A stretch of 64,000 nucleotides of DNA from Clavibacter michiganensis. Lineage in GTDB: Bacteria; Actinomycetota; Actinomycetes; Actinomycetales; Microbacteriaceae. Shown here one piece after another: positions 15,067 to 60,985 of the stretch (its first letter is position 1; each line of letters starts with the position of its first letter). Under the pieces are notes generated by a model. That model was not told where the DNA came from. It ran no database searches and saw nothing but the letters and a program-made list of their open reading frames with translations. The stretch is taken from the NCBI GenBank assembly GCA_002150995.1, contig MDHJ01000001.1, forward strand, positions 434,001 through 498,000. The letters run 5' to 3'. The position numbers were made by a program, and so were the translations under genes.

Positions 15067-17241
15067 ATGCCCGACACCGTCTCCCCGCCGTCCGCCGCCG
15101 CGACCTCCGACCTCCGGTCCGCCGCCCGCGAGCACCTGTCCCGGCTGGTCGGCGTCGCGGGCGCCGACTTCCACGACGGGCAGTTCGAGGCCATCGAGGC
15201 TCTCGTCCAGGACAGGTCCCGGGCCCTCGTCGTGCAGCGCACCGGGTGGGGGAAGTCCGCCGTCTACTTCGTCGCGACCCTCCTCCTCCGGCAGCAGGGC
15301 CTCGGGCCCACGCTGCTGGTCTCCCCGCTCCTCGCGCTCATGCGCGACCAGGTCGCCGCCGCCCGACGCGCCGGGGTCCGCGCCGTCGCCATGAACTCCA
15401 GCAACGCGCACGAGTGGGACGACCTGCTCCGGGCCCTCGACGCCGACGAGGTCGACCTCCTCCTCGTCTCGCCGGAGCGCCTCAACAACCCGCGCTTCCG
15501 CGACGAGCAGCTGCCCGCGCTGCGGGCCCGCCTCGGCCTCCTCGTGGTCGACGAGGCGCACTGCATCTCCGACTGGGGGCACGACTTCCGGCCCGACTAC
15601 CGCCGCCTCCGCGACCTCATCTCCTCGGTCGACGAGCGCGTGCCCGTGCTCGCCACCACGGCCACCGCCAACTCGCGCGTCGTCGCCGACGTCGAGGAGC
15701 AGCTGAGCGTCGGATCCACGGGAGGCGGCGCCGTGGAGACCGAGCGCGTGCCCGTGGTCACCATCCGCGGTCCGCTGGCCCGCCGGTCGCTGCGGCTCGG
15801 CGTGCTCCGGCTCGAGAGCAGCAGGGACCGCCTCGGGTGGCTCCTCAGCCACCTCGACGAGCTGCCCGGCAGCGGCATCATCTACGCGCTCACGGTCTCC
15901 GCCGCCCAGGACACCGCGCGGCTCCTGCGCGACGCCGGCCACGCGGTCAAGGCCTACACGGGCCGCGACGACCCGGCGGACCGCGAGCAGGCGGAGGGGG
16001 AGCTGCAGCGCAACGAGGTGAAGGCGCTGGTCGCCACGAGTGCGCTCGGCATGGGCTTCGACAAGCCCGACCTGGGCTTCGTCGTGCACCTCGGCGCGCC
16101 GTCGTCGCCCGTCTCCTACTACCAGCAGGTCGGCCGCGCGGGGCGCGGGTCGGCCGACGCCGACGTGCTGCTCCTGCCGGGCCGCGAGGATCCGGACATC
16201 TGGCAGTACTTCGCCACCGCCTCCATGCCGGACGAGCAGCAGGCCGCCGCCGTCATCCAGGCCCTCGGCGAGAGCGACCGGCCGCTGTCGGTGCCCGCGC
16301 TCGAGTCGCGGGTCAGCCTCTCCCGCAGCCGGCTCGACCTGCTGCTGAAGGTGCTCGACGTCGACGGGGCCGTGCGCCGCGACACCTCGGGGTGGTCGGC
16401 CACGGGCGTCCCGTGGGTCTACGACCGGGCCCGGTACGAGCAGGTCGCCGCGGCGCGCGTCCGCGAGCAGCAGGCGATGCTCGACTACGAGACCACGCTC
16501 GGCTGCCGCATGGAGTTCCTGCAGCGCCAGCTCGACGACGACACCGCCGCGCCCTGCGGGCGCTGCGACCGGTGCGCCGGGGCGTGGTACCCGTCATCGC
16601 TCGACCAGCAGGCGTCGGCCACCGCGTCGCAGGCTCTCGACAGGGTGGGCCTGCCGATCGAGCCGCGGCTGCGCTGGCCCGCGGGCGCGTCGAGCGTGGG
16701 GGTGCCCCTCAGCGGAGCCATCGCGGCCGGCGAGCAGGTGGACGAGGGCCGCGCCCTCGCCCGCCTCACCGACCTCGGCTGGGGCGGGCGCCTCCGCACG
16801 GTGTTCGCCTCCGGCGCGGAGGACGCTCCCGTCGACGACGCGCTCGTCGCCGCCTGCGTGCGCGTGCTCGCGGAGTGGGGCTGGGCGGAGCGCCCCCGGG
16901 CCGTCGTCCACGTGCCCTCCGCCGCCCGGCCGCAGCTCGTCGGGAGCCTCGCCCAGCGCATCGCCGAGGTCGGGCGGCTGCCGTTCCTCGGCTCGCTCGA
17001 CCTCGTCGATCCCGGGGCCCCCGGCGCGGCCCGCGGCAACAGCGTCTACCGGCTGGGGCGCGTGCACCCGCGGTTCCAGGTGCCCGCGCACCTGGCCGAC
17101 GACCTCACGGCGGATCCCCGGCCCGTGCTCCTCGTCGACGACCTGGTCGACACGCGGTGGACGCTCACGGTCGCGGGGCGCCTGCTCCGGAAGGCGGGCG
17201 CCACGCGCGTGCTGCCGTTCGCGCTCGCGCAGCAGGGGTAG
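15067..17241 (+). CDS. recQ: RecQ-family DNA helicase with C-terminal phosphoribosyltransferase domain
   Basis: 724 residues. Walker A QRTGWGKSAVYF (near residue 58), DEAH box LLVVDEAHCISDWGHDFRPDY (near 160), motif III LATTATAN, and motifs V/VI (ALGMGFDKPDLGFVVH, YYQQVGRAGRG). A four-Cys zinc motif (CRMEF ... CGRCDRC, near 478-500) is present. The last 150 residues are not RecQ-C/HRDC but a type I phosphoribosyltransferase fold ending with PVLLVDDLVDTRWTLTVAGR, a PRPP-binding motif. ATG 15067 is preferred; ATG 15058 is out of frame. Such fusions are known among actinobacterial RecQ-like proteins; what the PRTase does is unclear. Confidence 0.9.
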   Translation: MPDTVSPPSAAATSDLRSAAREHLSRLVGVAGADFHDGQFEAIEALVQDRSRALVVQRTGWGKSAVYFVATLLLRQQGLGPTLLVSPLLALMRDQVAAARRAGVRAVAMNSSNAHEWDDLLRALDADEVDLLLVSPERLNNPRFRDEQLPALRARLGLLVVDEAHCISDWGHDFRPDYRRLRDLISSVDERVPVLATTATANSRVVADVEEQLSVGSTGGGAVETERVPVVTIRGPLARRSLRLGVLRLESSRDRLGWLLSHLDELPGSGIIYALTVSAAQDTARLLRDAGHAVKAYTGRDDPADREQAEGELQRNEVKALVATSALGMGFDKPDLGFVVHLGAPSSPVSYYQQVGRAGRGSADADVLLLPGREDPDIWQYFATASMPDEQQAAAVIQALGESDRPLSVPALESRVSLSRSRLDLLLKVLDVDGAVRRDTSGWSATGVPWVYDRARYEQVAAARVREQQAMLDYETTLGCRMEFLQRQLDDDTAAPCGRCDRCAGAWYPSSLDQQASATASQALDRVGLPIEPRLRWPAGASSVGVPLSGAIAAGEQVDEGRALARLTDLGWGGRLRTVFASGAEDAPVDDALVAACVRVLAEWGWAERPRAVVHVPSAARPQLVGSLAQRIAEVGRLPFLGSLDLVDPGAPGAARGNSVYRLGRVHPRFQVPAHLADDLTADPRPVLLVDDLVDTRWTLTVAGRLLRKAGATRVLPFALAQQG

Positions 17242-17274: not shown

Positions 17275-18312
17275 TCAGGAGCGGTCGGCGATGCCACCGG
17301 GCGTCACGAAGACCGTGCCGCCGCCGTGCAGCCGGGCGCGCATCACCTCGAGGGCCTGCGGGTTCTCGTCCACCAGCACGAATCGCCGGCCGAGCTCGCG
17401 GGCGGCGGCCCCCGTCGTGCCGGACCCGGCGAAGAAGTCGAGCACCCAGTCGCCCGGGCGGCTCGAGGCCTGCACGATGCGGCGCAGGACGCCGAGCGGC
17501 TTCTGGGTCGCGTACCCGGTCTTCTCGCGGCCGGTCGGCGACACGATCGTGTGCCACCAGACGTCCGTGGGCAGCTTGCCGCGCTCGCGCTTCTCCGGGG
17601 TCACGAGGCCGGGCGCCATGTAGGGCTCGCGGTCCACCTCCGCGGAGTCGAAGCGGTAGCGGAGCGGGTCCTTCACGTAGACGAGGATCGTGTCGTGCTT
17701 CGCGGGCCAGCGGCGCCGCGACTTAGCGCCGTAGTCGTAGGCCCAGACGATCTCGTTGAGGAACGAGCGGCGGCCGAAGAGCGCGTCGAGCACCACCTTC
17801 GCGTAGTGCACCTCGCGGTAGTCGAGGTGCAGGTACAGCGTGCCGGTGGGATCCAGCAGCCGCCACGCCTCGATGAGGCGCGGCTCGAGGAACTCCCAGT
17901 AGTCGGCGAACGAGTCGTCGAAGCCGTAGAGGAGCCCCTTCACGGAGTCGTAGCTGCGGCCCTGGAAGCCGACGCGCGCACCGGGCGGTCGGGCGGGCTC
18001 GGGCGTCGCGGTGCTCGCGGGCGCCAGGGCGGGCGCGGTCTCCTCCGCGCCGGTGCTGGCGGCCGCGTCGGCGCCGCTCGCGGGGTCGGTGCCGCTCGCC
18101 GGGTCGGCGGACTCGGCGGTGGCCGCGTCGACAGCCGGATCCAGGGTGCGCGTGACGGTGAGGTTCTGGCGCTCCTGGGTGCGGCCCGTGTTGAAGGGCG
18201 GGTCCAGGTAGATGAGCTGGAAGGCGCCGTCGGGGAGCGCGCGGACGGCCTCGAGGTTCTCGCCGTGGATCACGAGGTCGGGGCCGTCGGGGGTCCACGC
18301 GGGCTGGGGCAC
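17275..18312 (-). CDS. DNA methyltransferase (N6-adenine or N4-cytosine), beta class, orphan
   Basis: 345 residues. Catalytic motif IV DPPFNTG lies near residue 40 and the SAM-binding motif I DFFAGSGTTGAA near residue 315, the order of beta-class amino-methyltransferases such as CcrM and many Type II/III Mod enzymes. Between them is an Ala/Thr/Pro low-complexity insert (about 60-105) not expected in the fold, then LHLDYREVHYAKVVLDALFG and WAYDYGAKSRRRWPAKHDTI. GTG 18312 follows a G-rich stretch. No restriction enzyme or specificity gene is nearby, so it is probably a solitary methylase; the recognition site cannot be read from sequence. Confidence 0.88.
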   Translation of the reverse strand: MPQPAWTPDGPDLVIHGENLEAVRALPDGAFQLIYLDPPFNTGRTQERQNLTVTRTLDPAVDAATAESADPASGTDPASGADAAASTGAEETAPALAPASTATPEPARPPGARVGFQGRSYDSVKGLLYGFDDSFADYWEFLEPRLIEAWRLLDPTGTLYLHLDYREVHYAKVVLDALFGRRSFLNEIVWAYDYGAKSRRRWPAKHDTILVYVKDPLRYRFDSAEVDREPYMAPGLVTPEKRERGKLPTDVWWHTIVSPTGREKTGYATQKPLGVLRRIVQASSRPGDWVLDFFAGSGTTGAAARELGRRFVLVDENPQALEVMRARLHGGGTVFVTPGGIADRS

Positions 18313-55679: not shown

Positions 55680-56513
55680 ATGACTACGCTGAATGAACTA
55701 AGAGATGCGGCGTTGGCGGCCTTTGGGGCCGTGTCAATCCGCGAACTTGCCGTGGGCGGACAAAAAGTGGTCAGCCTGGTCTCTGTAGGCGGTGAGAACC
55801 GTGTTCTCAAGCTTATGCTCACGGGCGGATCGGATCCGACAACTCTTGAACGTGCTCAGCGAGAGTTCGACTTGCTGTCTTCCGCGCCCCACCCCAATCT
55901 GGTGAAAGTGGAATCCGAACTACTAGCGCTCGGTAATCCTGTTGGCGGTGTCGCTTGGCTTGAAGAATATCTCGAAGGCGAGGACGTTGCTGGACTCCTG
56001 GATATCCCGTGGGAGGAAAGCGAGGTGCTCAGGCTCGGCGTAGATGTCTCTGGGGCGCTTGGTGCCTTGCATCGGTTAGATGTAACCCATCGCGACCTCA
56101 GTGCAGGGAATGTGCGCCGTCTCACCAGTGGGGAATTTAAGTTGATGGACCCGGGGTTCGCGAAATACTCGTTCAGGACAGGCATAACGGTAGGTGGCCA
56201 GCCGGGAACTCGCGGTTTCATGACGCCGGAACATGTCCAATCGTACACAACGCCAATACCGCCATCAGATGTCTTCGCCTTGGCCAACCTTATGTACGCC
56301 GCTGCTGTAGGTGCACTGCCGTTCCCGTACTTGGGGGACGACGCGGAGTATGTGATGAGGTTAACGCGAGGTCAGCATACGGCCCTACTGGAGGCCCGCC
56401 CCTCTTTCTCGCCTGCATTGGCGGACGTTATAGAGCAGGGGTTGAACACGCATCCGGCGCGCAGGTTCCGCAATGGAGGCGCGCTCAATGTTAAACTCTT
56501 GGAGATGTCATGA
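55680..56513 (+). CDS. Serine/threonine protein kinase-like protein of the island
   Basis: 277 residues, a bare kinase domain without a membrane anchor. Key residues are present: Lys44 (RVLKLM), Glu62, catalytic loop HRDLSAGN (137-144), metal-binding D157 in the unusual MDPGF (DFG is DPG), TPE in place of APE, then SDVFALANLMYAAAVGALPF (subdomain IX). The Gly loop is weak (VGGQKVV). The TGA overlaps the ATG of the next gene (ATGA), so both are made together. Low-GC codon use marks it as acquired. Possible role: sensor or activator of the neighbouring effectors; inferred. Confidence 0.88.
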   Translation: MTTLNELRDAALAAFGAVSIRELAVGGQKVVSLVSVGGENRVLKLMLTGGSDPTTLERAQREFDLLSSAPHPNLVKVESELLALGNPVGGVAWLEEYLEGEDVAGLLDIPWEESEVLRLGVDVSGALGALHRLDVTHRDLSAGNVRRLTSGEFKLMDPGFAKYSFRTGITVGGQPGTRGFMTPEHVQSYTTPIPPSDVFALANLMYAAAVGALPFPYLGDDAEYVMRLTRGQHTALLEARPSFSPALADVIEQGLNTHPARRFRNGGALNVKLLEMS

Positions 56514-57676
56514 CTGTTTTGATTCAAGATTCGGCTCGAAATAACCTCGCGAGCTGGACTGCGCGGGCAGTCGAGGGTGGGGACGCTATCGGCGCTATTA
56601 TGTCTCCCTTTTGTTCGCCCCGCCTTGGCAATGGCTATCATAAGTCGGCAGATGCGGTAAGGCAAGATATTGAGGATCAGGGTGGCGAGTTCTGGTTTGA
56701 CGCCAGTACACACGCACTGCAAATGCCAAGTGTCGGTGACTTTCGATTCTATGACGACTGGCAGCTCTGGCCGGGTGCGAGAGGGGACCTGTCGTCGGCT
56801 TCGCTTCGCGTGGGGCATGTGCGGAAGGTCTTCGCGGTCCAAGAACAACTAGGTGCTCGGCTCCTCGGGCCCACCATCCTCCTGCACAGCGCTCAAAGCG
56901 CTACCAGCCTTCAGGCGATCGAGCTCGCTAGAGCCGCACAAGAGGTCGCTAATGGGCGTGAATTCTGGCTTTCTATTGTCGGGGATTCGCATTTCTGGGC
57001 GTCCGAGGCTGACCTTGACGGCTTCATAGGTGTCATGGATCAGATCGAGCCGACGGGTTGGATTCTTTCCGTTGCGCGACCGCTGTCGGGGGTTCCGGTC
57101 GGAGCCGAAGCTAAAGAAGTTGCCGGCCTGATGCGTACGTCAGCGGCCTTGGGGACTTCCTGCCCGGTGATCATAGGACACGGGGATCTTGCGGCACTCC
57201 CCGCTGCAGCTGCTGGGGCATCGGTCGTCGGTAGTGGCTGGGATGTGCGCCAGCGTGTCCTCGCGTACCCCGATTTTGCTGAGCGTCCGCCTGCTGACCC
57301 CGACGCAATTGCGTCCTGGTACGCCCGACCAACGCTGGAGGGGCTCTTGGGAAATATGGTTCCAAATGAATTCGCTGTCTTGCAGAGCCAGCGGCCGAAC
57401 TTGGCTACGCGCCTTTACGCAGGTGCGCATACTGCCGGTGCCCAGCAGACGTTCCGTCATCACGTCCAGGTGATTAACAACGTCATGACCGCGGTTGAGG
57501 GGCAGGGACAGGGGCTTCGGGCTAGGGTTGAGGCCCTTGAAGAGATTTACAAAGAGTGCTTGGTTGAATGGCCCGCGGTGCAGGCCATAACTCGCTCTGC
57601 GGCTGGAGGTGACCAGTGGGTGTCCCCATTACTGGCCGGAGTCCAGCAGTTTAAATCTGATGAGGGTTGGGCTTAG
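56510..57676 (+). CDS. Unknown 388-residue island protein, probable TIM barrel
   Basis: No family recognised. Regular strand-helix alternation: AIGAIMSPFCSPRLG, GGEFWFDASTHALQMP, LGPTILLHSAQS, GREFWLSIVGDSHFW, GWILSVARPLSG, PVIIGHGDLAALPAAAAGASVVGSGW, ending with helices, including RVEALEEIYKECLVEW. The GHGDL ... GASVVGSGWD end resembles the phosphate- or substrate-binding end of TIM barrels. Conserved-looking polar residues (D, H, C in the strand ends) suggest an enzyme. Translationally coupled to the kinase; its 3' end overlaps the convergent nuclease gene by four bases. Confidence 0.8.
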   Translation: MTVLIQDSARNNLASWTARAVEGGDAIGAIMSPFCSPRLGNGYHKSADAVRQDIEDQGGEFWFDASTHALQMPSVGDFRFYDDWQLWPGARGDLSSASLRVGHVRKVFAVQEQLGARLLGPTILLHSAQSATSLQAIELARAAQEVANGREFWLSIVGDSHFWASEADLDGFIGVMDQIEPTGWILSVARPLSGVPVGAEAKEVAGLMRTSAALGTSCPVIIGHGDLAALPAAAAGASVVGSGWDVRQRVLAYPDFAERPPADPDAIASWYARPTLEGLLGNMVPNEFAVLQSQRPNLATRLYAGAHTAGAQQTFRHHVQVINNVMTAVEGQGQGLRARVEALEEIYKECLVEWPAVQAITRSAAGGDQWVSPLLAGVQQFKSDEGWA

Positions 57677-58563
57677 ATTAACGAATGAGCGATGTGCTCA
57701 AAGGCTAACATCTTGTGCTGTGTGCTAACTGGCCGAGGCTTCGGCTTACGGACCCACACGCCGTCCACGATAAGCCCTGCGCAGTCGCTGGCAACTTCTT
57801 CGCTGGCGGATGTGCGGGCGCCGTCGCTCAATGCGCCTAGCGCCACTACGTAGTTATTCGACCATACGCGGTATCGTCGCGATTGCTGAACGGCCTTTCG
57901 CCAATCTTTAACCTTGGCTTCAATGGCATACACAGAACCAGCTGGTGATAGTGCGGGATGGCGGGTATACTTGCGCGGAGTCGTCTCAATTACCGCACCA
58001 GCATTCTTCAGGTTTCGCAGCCTGAGGGCCGTAGTCTCGTCCGAGATGAGCAGTTGTTCGCTTAGCTGCGCCACGGTCCGTGTTCTCTTAATGTACAGAC
58101 TGGCTAAAAGGGATGCATCGGAAGGGCTCAGTATGGGGGCAATGCGAGAAGATAATCGGGCCGCTATTGCCTTTTGACCGCCAACGATTGCCGTGAAATC
58201 GGGTATACCGATAGGCCCACGCATTTCTGCAATGAGAAGCACTCCGGCCGAAGCTCCGGGTAATGTTGCGGCGGCAGCGATGGCGCCGGCGTGGATTTCT
58301 AACTCCTGAACGGGCTCGAATCGCTTGCCGCTGCGACCATCTGTGGCTTCGACAACCTTCACAAATGCCATAGAAAGGAAATCGCCTCCGAGCATATTAG
58401 CCGCATTTAGTTTGTGCCTAATGGCGCCGTTACCCGCGCTTTGGGCGGTGTCCAGATGTCGGTCATGCGATTGGGCGACAGAACCTAATCTTACACTTGC
58501 GACGGGAGCAGTGAGAACTTTCTCCACTCGTTCAAGCGCCGCGCTTAGCCCGGCGTGCCCCAC
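57673..58563 (-). CDS. PD-(D/E)xK nuclease-like protein with embedded winged helix
   Basis: 296 residues from GTG 58563 (GTG 58527 is possible; an ATG at 58743 would read through a GC-rich hairpin region). A split nuclease motif is visible: Pro121-Asp122 in GPIGIPDFTAIVGG and Glu215-x-Lys217 in VYAIEAKVKDWRKAVQQSRR, as in PD-(D/E)xK enzymes. Between them (about 146-200) is a winged-helix segment (SPSDASLLASLYIKR, VAQLSEQLLISDETTALRLRNLKNAGAV). The N-terminal part has no recognised domain. It is convergent with the kinase operon. Could act as a regulated DNA nuclease or as a DNA-binding regulator. Confidence 0.75.
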   Translation of the reverse strand: MGHAGLSAALERVEKVLTAPVASVRLGSVAQSHDRHLDTAQSAGNGAIRHKLNAANMLGGDFLSMAFVKVVEATDGRSGKRFEPVQELEIHAGAIAAAATLPGASAGVLLIAEMRGPIGIPDFTAIVGGQKAIAARLSSRIAPILSPSDASLLASLYIKRTRTVAQLSEQLLISDETTALRLRNLKNAGAVIETTPRKYTRHPALSPAGSVYAIEAKVKDWRKAVQQSRRYRVWSNNYVVALGALSDGARTSASEEVASDCAGLIVDGVWVRKPKPRPVSTQHKMLAFEHIAHSLI

Positions 58564-58729
58564 CTGCGGTGCGTCCGGTCCTCGCTCCGCTGAGGTCCGG
58601 GCGCTCCTCGGTGGGGCGCCACGATGACGTCGGCCCTCGTTAAGCAGCAAGACCCGCCTCTCCAAGTGTGAGGGGCGGGTCCGCGTGCCGACGCCATCGC
58701 GAGACACGTTGCTGGTCCGGGAAACAGTG
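58564..58729. other. GC-rich stretch with hairpin upstream of the nuclease gene
   Basis: GACCCGCCTCTC pairs with GAGGGGCGGGTC (about 58650-58680) with one mismatch, a terminator-like structure. Host-like GC content here contrasts with the island genes on its left. Confidence 0.4.
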
Positions 58730-59343
58730 CTAGGTCGAGGCATACCTTCTGGTCGCAGGGCCCGAAGGTTTCCAAGAGGGGCTTAGGGCTTCACGGTCCG
58801 CTGCGCTGAAGAGCAAGTCAGGCGGGCTCGGCACGACGATCTGCCGGACGAGGAGGGACAGGTCTAGGTGGGTCTCGACGTCGTCGAGGAGCTCGACTTG
58901 CGCGGACGCGCGTTGCAGATCGTCCTGGACTTCCTTCCTCGTTCAACCGTTGATGCCCATCAAGACCTCCACCACCTGGTCGTGGTCGGGGGCTCTACCC
59001 TCGCGCTGGGTGTTGGGCACGCCTTGCCCAGGGCGATGAGGCCGGCGAGGGCTTGGGTCAGCCTGTTGTCGCGCTCCTCGAAGCCCCAGATCTCATAACA
59101 GTCGGGGCGCTGAAGCTTCCCGGAGGGGCCGTGCGATTCGCCATCGCAGATCTGGCATAGGTTCCCGGCGCGAGCCGTGACGCCGAGCCGTATGCGTTCC
59201 CACTCCGACCATCGGGCGATGCTGCGCACGTTCGCGCCGTAGACCTTCGAGGGGAGCACATCGGCACGCATGCGCACGTGGCCGGCGGGCGCATCGGGCA
59301 TGAGCGTCGGAACTAACAGGTCGTGCCAGTGGGCGGTCGTCAT
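58730..59343 (-). pseudogene. HNH-like / zinc-binding protein remnant
   Basis: ATG 59343 reads MTTAHWHDLLVPTLMPDAPA and later WERIRLGVTARAGNLCQICDG, KLQRPDCYEIWGF, ALAGLIALGKAC, as in a family of phage/plasmid proteins with HNH-like Cys motifs. One base is missing after GKAC (near 59015); the next frame continues HNTQREGRAPDHDQVVEVLM and GING, then a TGA in place of the expected Trp codon, then TRKEVQDDLQRASAQVELLD. With a frameshift and a stop it is a pseudogene. Confidence 0.65.
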
Positions 59344-59472
59344 CGCGTTACCACCTCATCACGGACAGCAACGCCGACACCAACGTCTCCACATGCGTGA
59401 CTGTCTTCGCGGCCTCGGGGACGAAAGCCGCGGGCTCCAACGGACTCGACGGACGTCCGTGGACGCCCTGGC
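59344..59472. other. Island right end without a gene
   Basis: No supportable gene. The open frame on the minus strand here is the antisense of the tRNA fragment and is not real. Confidence 0.5.
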
Positions 59473-59520
59473 TCTGACTACGGATCAGAAGGTTGGGGGT
59501 TCGAATCCCTCCGGGCGCAC
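59473..59520. repeat. attR: 48-bp direct repeat, right copy
   Basis: Exact copy of the 3' part of tRNA-Arg. It lacks the D-arm half and is not a functional tRNA. Followed by 20 bases (AGCACCTCCGGGTGCGCATC) and then the 18-base block also found after attL. Confidence 0.9.
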
Positions 59521-59558
59521 AGCACCTCCGGGTGCGCATCTCTGGTTGAGACAGAATG

Positions 59559-59585
59559 GAACGGCCCGCCTCGTGCGGGCCGTTC
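59559..59585 (+). terminator. Original terminator of tRNA-Arg, beyond attR
   Basis: Perfect 11-bp stem (59559-59569 with 59575-59585), CTCGT loop, followed by TCGTC. Confidence 0.75.
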
Positions 59586-59621
59586 TCGTCTCCCGGGCCG
59601 TCCTCTCCGCTGTGGCCGGAC

Positions 59622-59894
59622 TCAGCGGGCCGCCGTGAGTGGTGCCACCACCCCGTGCTCGTACGCCCAGATCGTCGCGTGCAGGCGGTCGCGCACCCCG
59701 AGCTTGTCGAGCGTCCGGCTCACGTGCGTCTTCACCGTGGTCGGCGCGAGGAACAGTCGCCCGGCGATCTCCGCGTTCGAGAGCCCGCGGGCCACCAGCA
59801 CGAGGATCTCGCGCTCGCGTGCCGTCAGCCGTGCCAGGTCCGTGCCGGCGCCGATCCTGCCGCCGCCGCGCCCGTGGTCGACGAGCGCGCTCAC
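59622..59894 (-). CDS. Stand-alone LuxR-type HTH protein
   Basis: 90 residues: [20 protein letters not shown] then [20 protein letters not shown] and [20 protein letters not shown], a complete LuxR/NarL DNA-binding domain with no receiver domain. GTG 59894 overlaps the stop of the upstream membrane gene (GTGA), so it is the last gene of the PadR operon. It may be a real small regulator or the remnant of a response regulator. Confidence 0.8.
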
Positions 59895-60985
59895 GGGGTC
59901 GGCTCCGGGGTGGGCGTGGGCTCGGGTGCGGGCTCCCCGCCCGGCGCGTCCTCCGGCGCCGTCGTCGCGTCGTCGCTCGGCGACGGGCTCGGCGTCGCGG
60001 TGCCGACGGACCCCAGGGGCAGCGCCTTGGCGAACGGCGGACGCACGACCCCCGAGCCGACGGGCACGCTCCCGTCGGCGACGGCGATCATGTCCCGGTC
60101 GAGGGGGAACACGTTCCAGGCGCCGTCGGCGGGCGTCACGTACTCGCCCGTGGTCGGGTCCACGACCCGGCCGTCCTCCTCGATGCCGCTGACCGTCGTC
60201 ACGGGCTCCCCGTCCTGGTCGAACAGCTGCACGCGGTCGAGGAGGTCCCCCTCGGCGTCGTACGCGAACAGGTTCGCGATCGCCTTGCCGTCCAGGGAGA
60301 GCCCCGGCTCCTGGTACGGCGGCGAGTAGGTGCTCTCGTCGACGTATCCGTCGCTTGCCGAGTCGGTGAGGGCGACGGGGACGAGGACCACGAGCGAGAG
60401 GGCGGTGGCCACGCTGACGACCGTCCGCGAGGTCCGCAGGAACCGGCTCCCCGCCCAGCGGCCCCGGCCCCACTGCACGCTGACCAGCGTGAGGGCGGCG
60501 AGCAGCAGCCAGCCCAGCGGACCGCCGGGGAGCAGCGTGAAGGGGTGGGAGGAGCCGAAGACGACGGCGAGCACGATGAGGGCGCACTGATAGCCGGCCC
60601 AGGCCCGCAGCAGCCACCACACCGGGCGGAAGACGATCAGGAGGTCGAGGATCGCGGAGAGCTCGCGGTTCCCACGCACGGTGCGCAGCGTCTCGCGCCC
60701 GGTCTCGTCGATCCGCTGCCGGAGCAGCGACAGGGGCGAGGCGGGGGCCGGCGTCGCCGACGTGCGCTCGGGCAGCCCCGCGGAGGAGCGCAGCTCGTCG
60801 GCGTAGCGCACCGGGTCGCCGAGCTCGAGGGCGCCGTCGTGATCCGCGGCCTCCTCCTGCAGGTCGGCCTCGAGGCCGCCCGTGAGGTCGTCGACGTCCT
60901 CCGGGTCGAGGTCGGCCAGCCGGGCGCGCACGGCGGCGGCGAAGGCCCGGATGCGGGTGTCGAGGGCGGGATCTGCGGTGTTCAC
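59891..60985 (-). CDS. HAAS-domain membrane protein linked to PadR
   Basis: 364 residues. N-terminal HAAS-like helical domain ([50 protein letters not shown]), about four membrane helices ([53 protein letters not shown]) and a soluble C-terminus with Pro/Glu/Thr repeats. HAAS proteins are usually encoded next to PadR regulators and may work with them. The start overlaps the PadR stop (60982-60985). Confidence 0.85.

What the first reader, a model, noticed from the sequence alone, without database searches (positions are those of the whole stretch)
15067..17241. RecQ helicase fused to a phosphoribosyltransferase-like domain
The helicase core and zinc motif are followed not by HRDC but by a type I PRTase ending in VLLVDDLVDTRWT. 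A nucleotide-salvage or ligand-binding domain on a DNA helicase is functionally puzzling; it may sense PRPP or a nucleotide.
Basis: partly seen in the sequence, partly recalled or inferred. Interest (0 to 1): 0.5.

Follow-up and report, generated by a model that had tools for sequence, protein, structure and literature searches.

The report
RqlH: DNA helicase with nucleotide-binding tail
This gene makes a known type of DNA-unwinding enzyme (RqlH, also called PsyrT) that carries a nucleotide-handling domain at its end; in E. coli that domain can damage DNA unless a partner protein restrains it, and here the partner is missing but the domain is still strongly conserved.

Summary
The ORF at 15067-17241 (+), 724 aa, is a RecQ-type helicase with a four-cysteine zinc motif, no HRDC match, and a C-terminal type I PRTase fold. 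It is not new: it is RqlH (first described in Mycobacterium smegmatis), the toxin-like half of the E. coli RqlH-RqlI system, listed in PADLOC as PsyrT (full length, 703 bits). The PRTase domain is closest in fold to ComFC and the defence toxin ShosT. The DprA-like partner (RqlI/PsyrA) was not found in the window's genome; only an ordinary DprA was.
What I add: (1) within the genus the PRTase domain is under purifying selection as strong as the helicase core (dN/dS 0.029 each). (2) In 146 homologues the 5'-phosphate part of the PRPP loop is nearly invariant, but the flexible loop keeps its ComFC-type Gln and Asn in 13 of 13 DprA-coupled proteins and 21 of 126 partnerless ones; the window's lacks both. 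(3) DprA-coupled RqlH occurs in Actinomycetota (7 of 57 genomes with RqlH). My reading: a domesticated RqlH that still binds PRPP or a nucleotide but needs no antidote. Identity is near certain; that mechanism is inference.

The parts
15067..17241 (+). rqlH (psyrT-type) gene, 724 aa plus stop
   Evidence: PADLOC PsyrT 18-723, 703.1 bits
15154..16221 (+). RecQ-type SF2 helicase core, about aa 30-385: Walker A TGWGKS (aa 59-64), DEAH (aa 162-165)
   Evidence: Pfam; NCBIfam TIGR01389 aa 33-395; PDB RecQ E 1.2e-50; motif counts
16222..16596 (+). winged-helix-like and zinc region, about aa 386-510; cysteines 480, 497, 500, 503
   Evidence: RecQ_Zn_bind aa 460-503 below cut-off; each cysteine present in 143 of 146 homologues
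16744..17232 (+). PRTase-like domain, about aa 560-722
   Evidence: dN/dS 0.029 within the genus
16894..16953 (+). PPi-loop region aa 610-629 (P610, S618, R621-P622)
   Evidence: alignment and counts; placed by comparison with ComFC
17023..17064 (+). flexible-loop region aa 653-666: G653 and R665 where DprA-coupled relatives have Q and N; N658 kept
17125..17169 (+). PRPP loop aa 687-701, VLLVDDLVDTRWTLT
17278..18222 (-). convergent neighbour: N6/N4 DNA methylase; genus-conserved neighbour, not shown to belong to the system
   Evidence: Pfam PF01555; next to rqlH in 6 of 6 congeners read, not found in the other 162 loci, most with 1.5-4 kb of flank

Best explanation
The gene encodes a partnerless RqlH/PsyrT protein: a RecQ-like helicase, by homology an ATP-driven 3'-5' translocase, joined to a ComFC/ShosT-like PRTase domain. 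In E. coli, a DprA-coupled relative, the PRTase is the harmful part and the DprA-like partner restrains it. In the crown Actinomycetes clade that includes this protein, the partner is gone and the flexible loop that closes over PRPP is rebuilt, while the 5'-phosphate pocket is kept under strong selection. The most likely working mode is that the domain binds PRPP, a nucleotide monophosphate or a 5'-phosphorylated DNA end and so couples nucleotide supply or DNA-end state to helicase action in DNA repair, with no or weak PRTase turnover and hence no need of an antidote. Shown: domain make-up, family identity, missing partner, selection, loop difference. Published for relatives: helicase activity, toxicity, restraint by RqlI. 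Inferred: direction of the loop change, ligand, coupling and loss of turnover.
For: Family: PsyrT full length, E 8.6e-212; helicase core matches RecQ, BLM, WRN and RECQL5 structures. PRTase fold; best VIA rows are ComFC 7p0h (Z 12.4, rmsd 6.2, 172 aligned) and ShosT with PRPP-Mg 8zvc (Z 11.3, rmsd 3.6, 170 aligned), with APRTs next at about Z 10. Function kept: dN/dS PRTase 0.029, helicase 0.029, zinc/WH 0.077, linker 0.097 over 78 pairs of 13 congeneric genes; 18 of 18 genomes of the genus carry it whole. Partner absent: the only DprA match in the genome is about 980 kb away; its matched stretch scores PsyrA 83 bits against ShosA 164, whereas eight actinobacterial partners beside rqlH score PsyrA 172-297. 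Loop: Q653 with N665 in 13 of 13 DprA-coupled and 21 of 126 partnerless proteins; phosphate-loop S/T696 and W698 in all 146. Relatives, from PMC4670107 (abstract, passages, section 15 and the first of two parts of section 16 read): M. smegmatis RqlH unwinds 3'-5' and its PRTase is dispensable for that; E. coli RqlH is genotoxic through its PRTase (D663A or truncation abolishes growth inhibition and SOS) and RqlI likely binds that domain.
Against: No ligand binding or activity was measured here, and I met none for any RqlH PRTase in what I read. The loop change sits on one clade of the tree, so its link with partner loss rests on few events: one independent pair on starred branches, five on all. 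21 partnerless proteins still have the Gln and Asn, so partner loss came before loop change or is separate from it. Russell and Mulvey write that they saw no major differences between RqlH with and without RqlI. PRTase-less rqlH frames exist on two Rhodococcus plasmids, and the acidic pair is changed in 18 of 146, so the domain is not always needed in this form. In E. coli, helicase-dead RqlH was also harmful, so toxicity is not a matter of the PRTase loop alone (PMC4670107).
Confidence: 0.45

Rival explanations
1. Active enzyme, ShosT-like: the PRTase turns over PRPP or purine nucleotides and disturbs the nucleotide pool when triggered (for example by phage), and another host factor replaces the DprA antidote. 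The gene is then a solitary defence or abortive-infection effector.
For: Second-best structural match is ShosT; PsyrT profile match; relatives lie inside a type I restriction operon and a BREX locus; the acidic pair and phosphate-loop Thr/Trp/Thr are intact in the window protein. A review states that ShosT is a phosphoribosyl transferase and pyrophosphatase that disturbs purine metabolism (PMC12593503, passage read).
Against: Present in 18 of 18 genomes of the genus, with conserved neighbours in 6 of 6 read: steady, core-like inheritance rather than patchy. No partner; among the six neighbours scanned the only DNA-modifying one is a solitary methylase. Flexible loop changed. PsyrTA gave no detectable protection in one native-host study with overexpression (PMC12409345, passages read).
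Confidence: 0.25
2. Structural remnant: the PRTase fold only stabilises the helicase or contacts DNA or protein partners and binds no small ligand.
For: PRTase dispensable for M. smegmatis helicase activity (reported in PMC4670107); ComFC with its nucleotide site mutated still binds ssDNA (PMC9005727, passages read); PRTase-less forms exist; acidic pair changed in 18 of 146.
Against: S/T696 and W698 in 146 of 146, T/S699 in 144 of 146, in the loop that holds the 5'-phosphate; the D-D pair is kept in 128 of 146.
Confidence: 0.2
3. DNA uptake or ssDNA handling in the manner of ComFA-ComFC, as one fused polypeptide.
For: ComFC is the top VIA match and ComFC-type proteins match profile-to-profile; DprA partners in relatives; the parallel is made in print (PMC4670107, PMC5512222, passages read).
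Against: The genome has a separate ComFC-type gene at 1066214-1066879 (39.6 bits to TIGR00201, below its cut-off); none of the six neighbours scanned is a competence gene; the authors could not detect transformation in their E. coli isolates (PMC4670107).
Confidence: 0.1

Closest known systems
RqlH of Mycobacterium smegmatis (MSMEG_5935; Ordonez, Unciuleac and Shuman 2012, not held, known through PMC4670107 and PMC5512222)
   Same: RecQ-like core, C-terminal PRTase, no RqlI in the genome (as stated in PMC4670107).
   Different: Its sequence was not fetched here, so no residue comparison was made. Some actinobacterial rows (L029, L030 and L213 of family code f6; Antrihabitans L120; Rhodococcus L127) have lost the second Asp of the PRPP loop (T, A or L); the window keeps DD.
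E. coli RqlH-RqlI
   Same: Same whole-length domain order; PRPP-loop DDxxD(S/T)xWT; 39.3% identity for the plasmid copy.
   Different: The E. coli loci read have a DprA-type gene beside it and the QK...N...Q..N flexible loop; the window has neither.
PsyrTA (PADLOC PDLC03928 / PDLC03927)
   Same: Toxin-half profile matched over its full length.
   Different: No PsyrA partner found in the genome, so not a PsyrTA system.
ComFC (competence PRT protein)
   Same: Type I PRT fold, DD loop, top VIA match.
   Different: ComFC is a separate protein with TTG in the PRPP loop and Gln/Asn in the flexible loop; the window has TRW and Gly/Arg.
ShosT of the ShosTA defence pair
   Same: PRTase fold; DprA-type partner in this family's coupled members.
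   Different: ShosT is, as recalled, not fused to a helicase; the window has no antitoxin gene beside it.

Membership tests
RqlH | RecQ-like SF2 helicase core | tested here: met
   K63 in 145 of 146, D162-E163 in 146 of 146
RqlH | four-cysteine zinc motif after the core | tested here: met
   C480, C497, C500, C503 present; each in 143 of 146 homologues
RqlH | no HRDC domain | tested here: met
   no HRDC match at E up to 1 in the Pfam scan; HRDC found only at two other places of the genome
RqlH | C-terminal PRTase-like domain | tested here: met
RqlH | ATP-dependent 3'-5' translocation and unwinding | not testable with these tools
   published for M. smegmatis RqlH
PsyrTA / RqlHI two-gene system | adjacent DprA-type partner (PsyrA/RqlI) | tested here: not met
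   no DprA-type gene beside it; only one DprA match in the genome, 980 kb away and ordinary by score
PsyrTA / RqlHI two-gene system | toxicity of the helicase-PRTase protein alone | not testable with these tools
   published for E. coli RqlH (PMC4670107); PsyrTA is called a validated TA family in PMC8790059 (passage)
Type I PRTase (enzyme) | PRPP loop with acidic pair and Thr/Ser-Gly...Thr | tested here: inconclusive
   D691-D692, T696 and T699 present; Gly is Arg697, as in 68 of 146 homologues
Type I PRTase (enzyme) | phosphoribosyl transfer | not testable with these tools
   no assay
ComFC | ComFC-type flexible loop (Gln ... Asn-Leu-x-Gly-Ala) | tested here: not met
   G653 and R665 in the window; Q and N present in the 13 DprA-coupled RqlH

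The most novel reading that the evidence does not exclude
A toxin domain turned sensor: in the common ancestor of the crown Actinomycetes RqlH clade the genotoxic PRTase lost its catalytic flexible loop but kept its 5'-phosphate pocket, became a PRPP or nucleotide sensor that gates a DNA-repair helicase, and thereby made the DprA-like antidote dispensable for good. This would answer why most Gram-positive RqlH needs no RqlI.
Probability: 0.25. Interest if true: 0.65.

Novelty: new member of a known kind. Interest (0 to 1): 0.35.

Why it matters
RqlH is a case of a nucleotide-metabolism fold wired to a DNA helicase, and why many bacteria carry it without the antidote was left open by the 2015 study. 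The comparison here names concrete residues (W612, Q653, N665 and the acidic pair) that separate antidote-coupled from most partnerless forms, shows that the partnerless domain is under strong selection in this genus, and finds antidote-coupled forms inside Actinomycetota as natural controls. That makes the question testable by loop swaps in laboratory E. coli. For the window itself the gene is an ordinary, genus-wide member of a known family.

Tried and rejected
Novel architecture: rejected, because RqlH/PsyrT is described.

Arg for Gly in the PRPP loop as a mark of partnerless forms: rejected, since 7 of 13 DprA-coupled proteins also have Arg.

A DNA-methylase and helicase module: the methylase is next to rqlH in 6 of 6 congeners read but was not found in the other 162 loci (most of those have only 1.5-4 kb of flank), so there is no support beyond the genus.

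Phage cargo: no phage record covers 80% of the protein (0 of 22 matching records; 0 of 21 with the E. coli query); 2 of 44 IMG/VR loci are full length.

A PRTase hidden in another frame of the two Rhodococcus plasmid stretches: five PRTase queries gave nothing better than E 0.027.

Statistical link of partner loss and loop change: independent-pair test too small, so I claim only a clade-level difference. Rows: 163 loci had a hit; 5 fragments (L111, L130, L131, L200, L201) and 12 duplicates were dropped to 146; 7 rows with under 900 bases of downstream flank were set aside as unknown. L200 and L201 have a PsyrA-like neighbour but are not in the 13. The 13 include two near-identical E. coli alleles and two close relatives (L043, L128). 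The actinobacterial rows are enriched for close relatives: 80 came as the best of 587 confirmed stretches, themselves from a capped list. 68 of the 146 went into the tree. One search scored three candidates a genome, so 57 genomes with RqlH is a lower bound.

The ComFC-type proteins used as yardstick (20 of 30 fetched) all lie below the curated cut-off of TIGR00201 (0 of 60 genomes over it), so they are ComFC-type by profile, not proven ComFC.

The whole-protein fold search was filled by helicases and said nothing about the tail, so the tail was folded alone. The founding paper (10.1093/nar/gks046) is not held. The original paper on ShosTA was not found; its content is known only from one review passage. 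Papers opened by passages that added little: PMC13316683, PMC9122126, PMC12278908, PMC8790059, PMC10732053.

Full report
WHAT IS THERE. The frame 15067-17241 (+) encodes 724 aa. Residues 39-208 and 265-360 are the two helicase domains; the nearest NCBIfam model is RecQ, matched over 33-395 but far below its equivalog cut-off (268 against 640 bits; the RecQ-family model 214 against 220), so it is RecQ-like and not RecQ itself. A four-cysteine zinc motif follows (C480, C497, C500, C503). No HRDC is found; the genome's HRDC matches lie at 772679 and 1794403. The whole-protein model (mean pLDDT 87.0, pTM 0.84) matches RecQ, BLM, WRN and RECQL5 cores over residues 8-516.

THE TAIL. Pfam alone sees 29 residues of Pribosyltran below its cut-off. 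Family-level evidence is stronger: 36 of 43 relatives hit Pribosyltran singly at E <= 0.1, the profile finds PRPP synthetases (E 7e-6) and PurF (E 0.004) in the PDB, and it matches 20 actinobacterial ComFC-type proteins profile-to-profile with probability 97.9, E 5.3e-13 in a single comparison; those 20 lie below the curated ComF cut-off. Folded alone (aa 508-724, pLDDT 93.2), its best VIA matches are H. pylori ComFC (Z 12.4, rmsd 6.2, 172 aligned) and ShosT with PRPP-Mg (Z 11.3, rmsd 3.6, 170 aligned), then adenine PRTases near Z 10. Foldseek scores are modest (best E 8.5e-5; ComFC third, E 1.3e-4).

WHAT IT IS. PADLOC's PsyrT profile is matched from 18 to 723, 703 bits. The same architecture was named RqlH in M. 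smegmatis and studied in E. coli by Russell and Mulvey (PMC4670107; abstract, passages, section 15 and part 1 of 2 of section 16 read): the PRTase is dispensable for the M. smegmatis helicase; E. coli RqlH is genotoxic through its PRTase, though helicase-dead forms were harmful too; RqlI, a DprA-like protein encoded downstream, needs that domain for binding and restrains it; among Gram-positive bacteria with these genes 99.6% had RqlH only; and the authors saw no major sequence differences between the two kinds. The link to ComFC and DprA is made there and in PMC5512222 (passages).

DISTRIBUTION. RqlH is present in at least 57 of 296 actinobacterial genomes (54 full length by my count; G097 seen whole, G183 and G236 as fragments). 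Of these 57, seven have a PsyrA-like gene beside it (G016, G045 twice, G084, G124, G183, G236, G263; PsyrA 172-297 bits), and three could not be judged for lack of flank (G028, G091, G103). In the window's genus 18 of 18 genomes carry it over the whole model. In its family 79 of 150 genomes pass the threshold, but some of these are ordinary RecQ matched only over the helicase part; 63 rows span the whole model by my count, and two that did not (G374, G437) proved full length when read. Among plasmid records 11 of 190 with a match cover 80% or more. On an E. coli plasmid the rqlH-dprA pair lies inside a type I restriction operon; on an Acinetobacter plasmid it lies inside a BREX locus; a Nostoc plasmid has the pair too. 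In 1651 of 5426 E. coli genomes some part of a query of rqlH's 3' end plus dprA is found at DNA level, in some only the dprA part; 53 hold 80% or more of it.

NO PARTNER HERE. One DprA match exists in the genome, at 1429250. Its matched stretch scores 83 bits to PsyrA and 164 to ShosA. In 18 of 18 genomes of the genus the best PsyrA match is 53-88 bits, and one genome (G306) has a second, weaker one: ordinary DprA by score. Neighbours of rqlH (HAD hydrolase, phosphoesterase, PLDc_N protein, N6/N4 DNA methylase, kynureninase) are shared by 6 of 6 congeners read and were not found in the other 162 loci apart from five unspecific SDR hits.

SELECTION. Over 13 congeneric genes (78 pairs, Nei-Gojobori by own script), dN/dS is 0.029 for the helicase (aa 30-385), 0.077 for the WH/zinc part, 0.097 for the linker, 0.029 for the PRTase (aa 560-722) and 0.49 for the N-terminal 20 residues. 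The PRTase is therefore as constrained as the helicase.

ACTIVE-SITE TEST. In 146 unique full-length proteins: S/T696 146, W698 146, T/S699 144, D691-D692 128, N658 143. Position 697, Gly in ComFC, is G in 69 and R in 68. Split by neighbour (13 DprA-coupled, 126 partnerless, 7 unknown): acidic pair 13/13 against 109/126; D695 13/13 against 84/126; Q653 with N665 13/13 against 21/126; W612 13/13 against 14/126. The window has DD, D695, T696, R697, W698, T699, but A612, G653 and R665. In H. pylori ComFC the PRPP loop reads DDIITTGTTL, and the threonine that aligns with T699 matters for nucleotide binding (PMC9005727, passages). Gln and Asn of the flexible loop recur in ComFC-type proteins.

TREE. 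On a tree of 68 helicase parts (PRTase columns left out, quick method) the DprA-coupled proteins lie outside one starred clade of 31 rows (SH-aLRT 97) that holds the window. In these 31 the Q653+N665 pair is in 0, W612 in 0, the acidic pair in 30. W612 is also absent from the nine-row sister group, in which five keep the loop pair and only one keeps the acidic pair. Other partnerless lineages outside keep the old loop, so partner loss does not by itself bring the loop change. The tree is not rooted; that the loop was lost rather than gained is inferred from its presence in ComFC-type proteins. The independent-pair test has too few pairs to decide (one on starred branches).

READING. Identity as RqlH/PsyrT is close to certain. 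That the domain still binds a 5'-phosphorylated ligand is likely from the invariant loop and the selection. That turnover is lost or weak, and that this explains the missing antidote, is inference at about one in four. The rival of a live ShosT-like effector stays open: ShosT is described in a review as a PRTase and pyrophosphatase that disturbs purine pools and leads to filamentation and death (PMC12593503, passage), and E. coli RqlH phenotypes (SOS, filamentation) are similar in kind.

LIMITS. My literature searches cover only the held open-access library; the founding RqlH paper was not readable. No biochemical claim about this protein is tested.

Noticed in passing
own genome, G000:C1:34762-36143 (outside the window): A further RecQ-like gene is matched in two different frames here, whereas 16 congeners show it as one match at a full stretch: a frameshift or an assembly error; this genome is scored 92.3% complete against 99-100% in the genus.
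   Followed up: no
window 56001-60000: G+C drops to 0.62 against 0.72-0.77 in the other 4-kb blocks, as in an acquired stretch.
   Followed up: no
window 17278-18222 (-): Solitary N6/N4 DNA methylase, convergent with rqlH, same place in 6 of 6 congeners read.
   Followed up: partly
L040 5995-9512; L044 6004-9533: rqlH-dprA pairs sit inside a type I restriction operon (E. coli plasmid) and inside a BREX locus (Acinetobacter plasmid).
   Followed up: partly
L043 7971-9361 (Sinorhizobium meliloti pSymB): A PsyrA-like sequence beside rqlH has no annotated gene in the record's table and runs over two open frames.
   Followed up: partly
L194, L195 (genome G045): Two rqlH-psyrA pairs about 21 kb apart on one contig.
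   Followed up: no
L242 3983-5482; L243 3965-5515 (Rhodococcus linear plasmids): rqlH-like frames, not in the record's gene table, that end after the zinc motif; no PRTase sequence found in the 9.5 kb read around each.
   Followed up: yes
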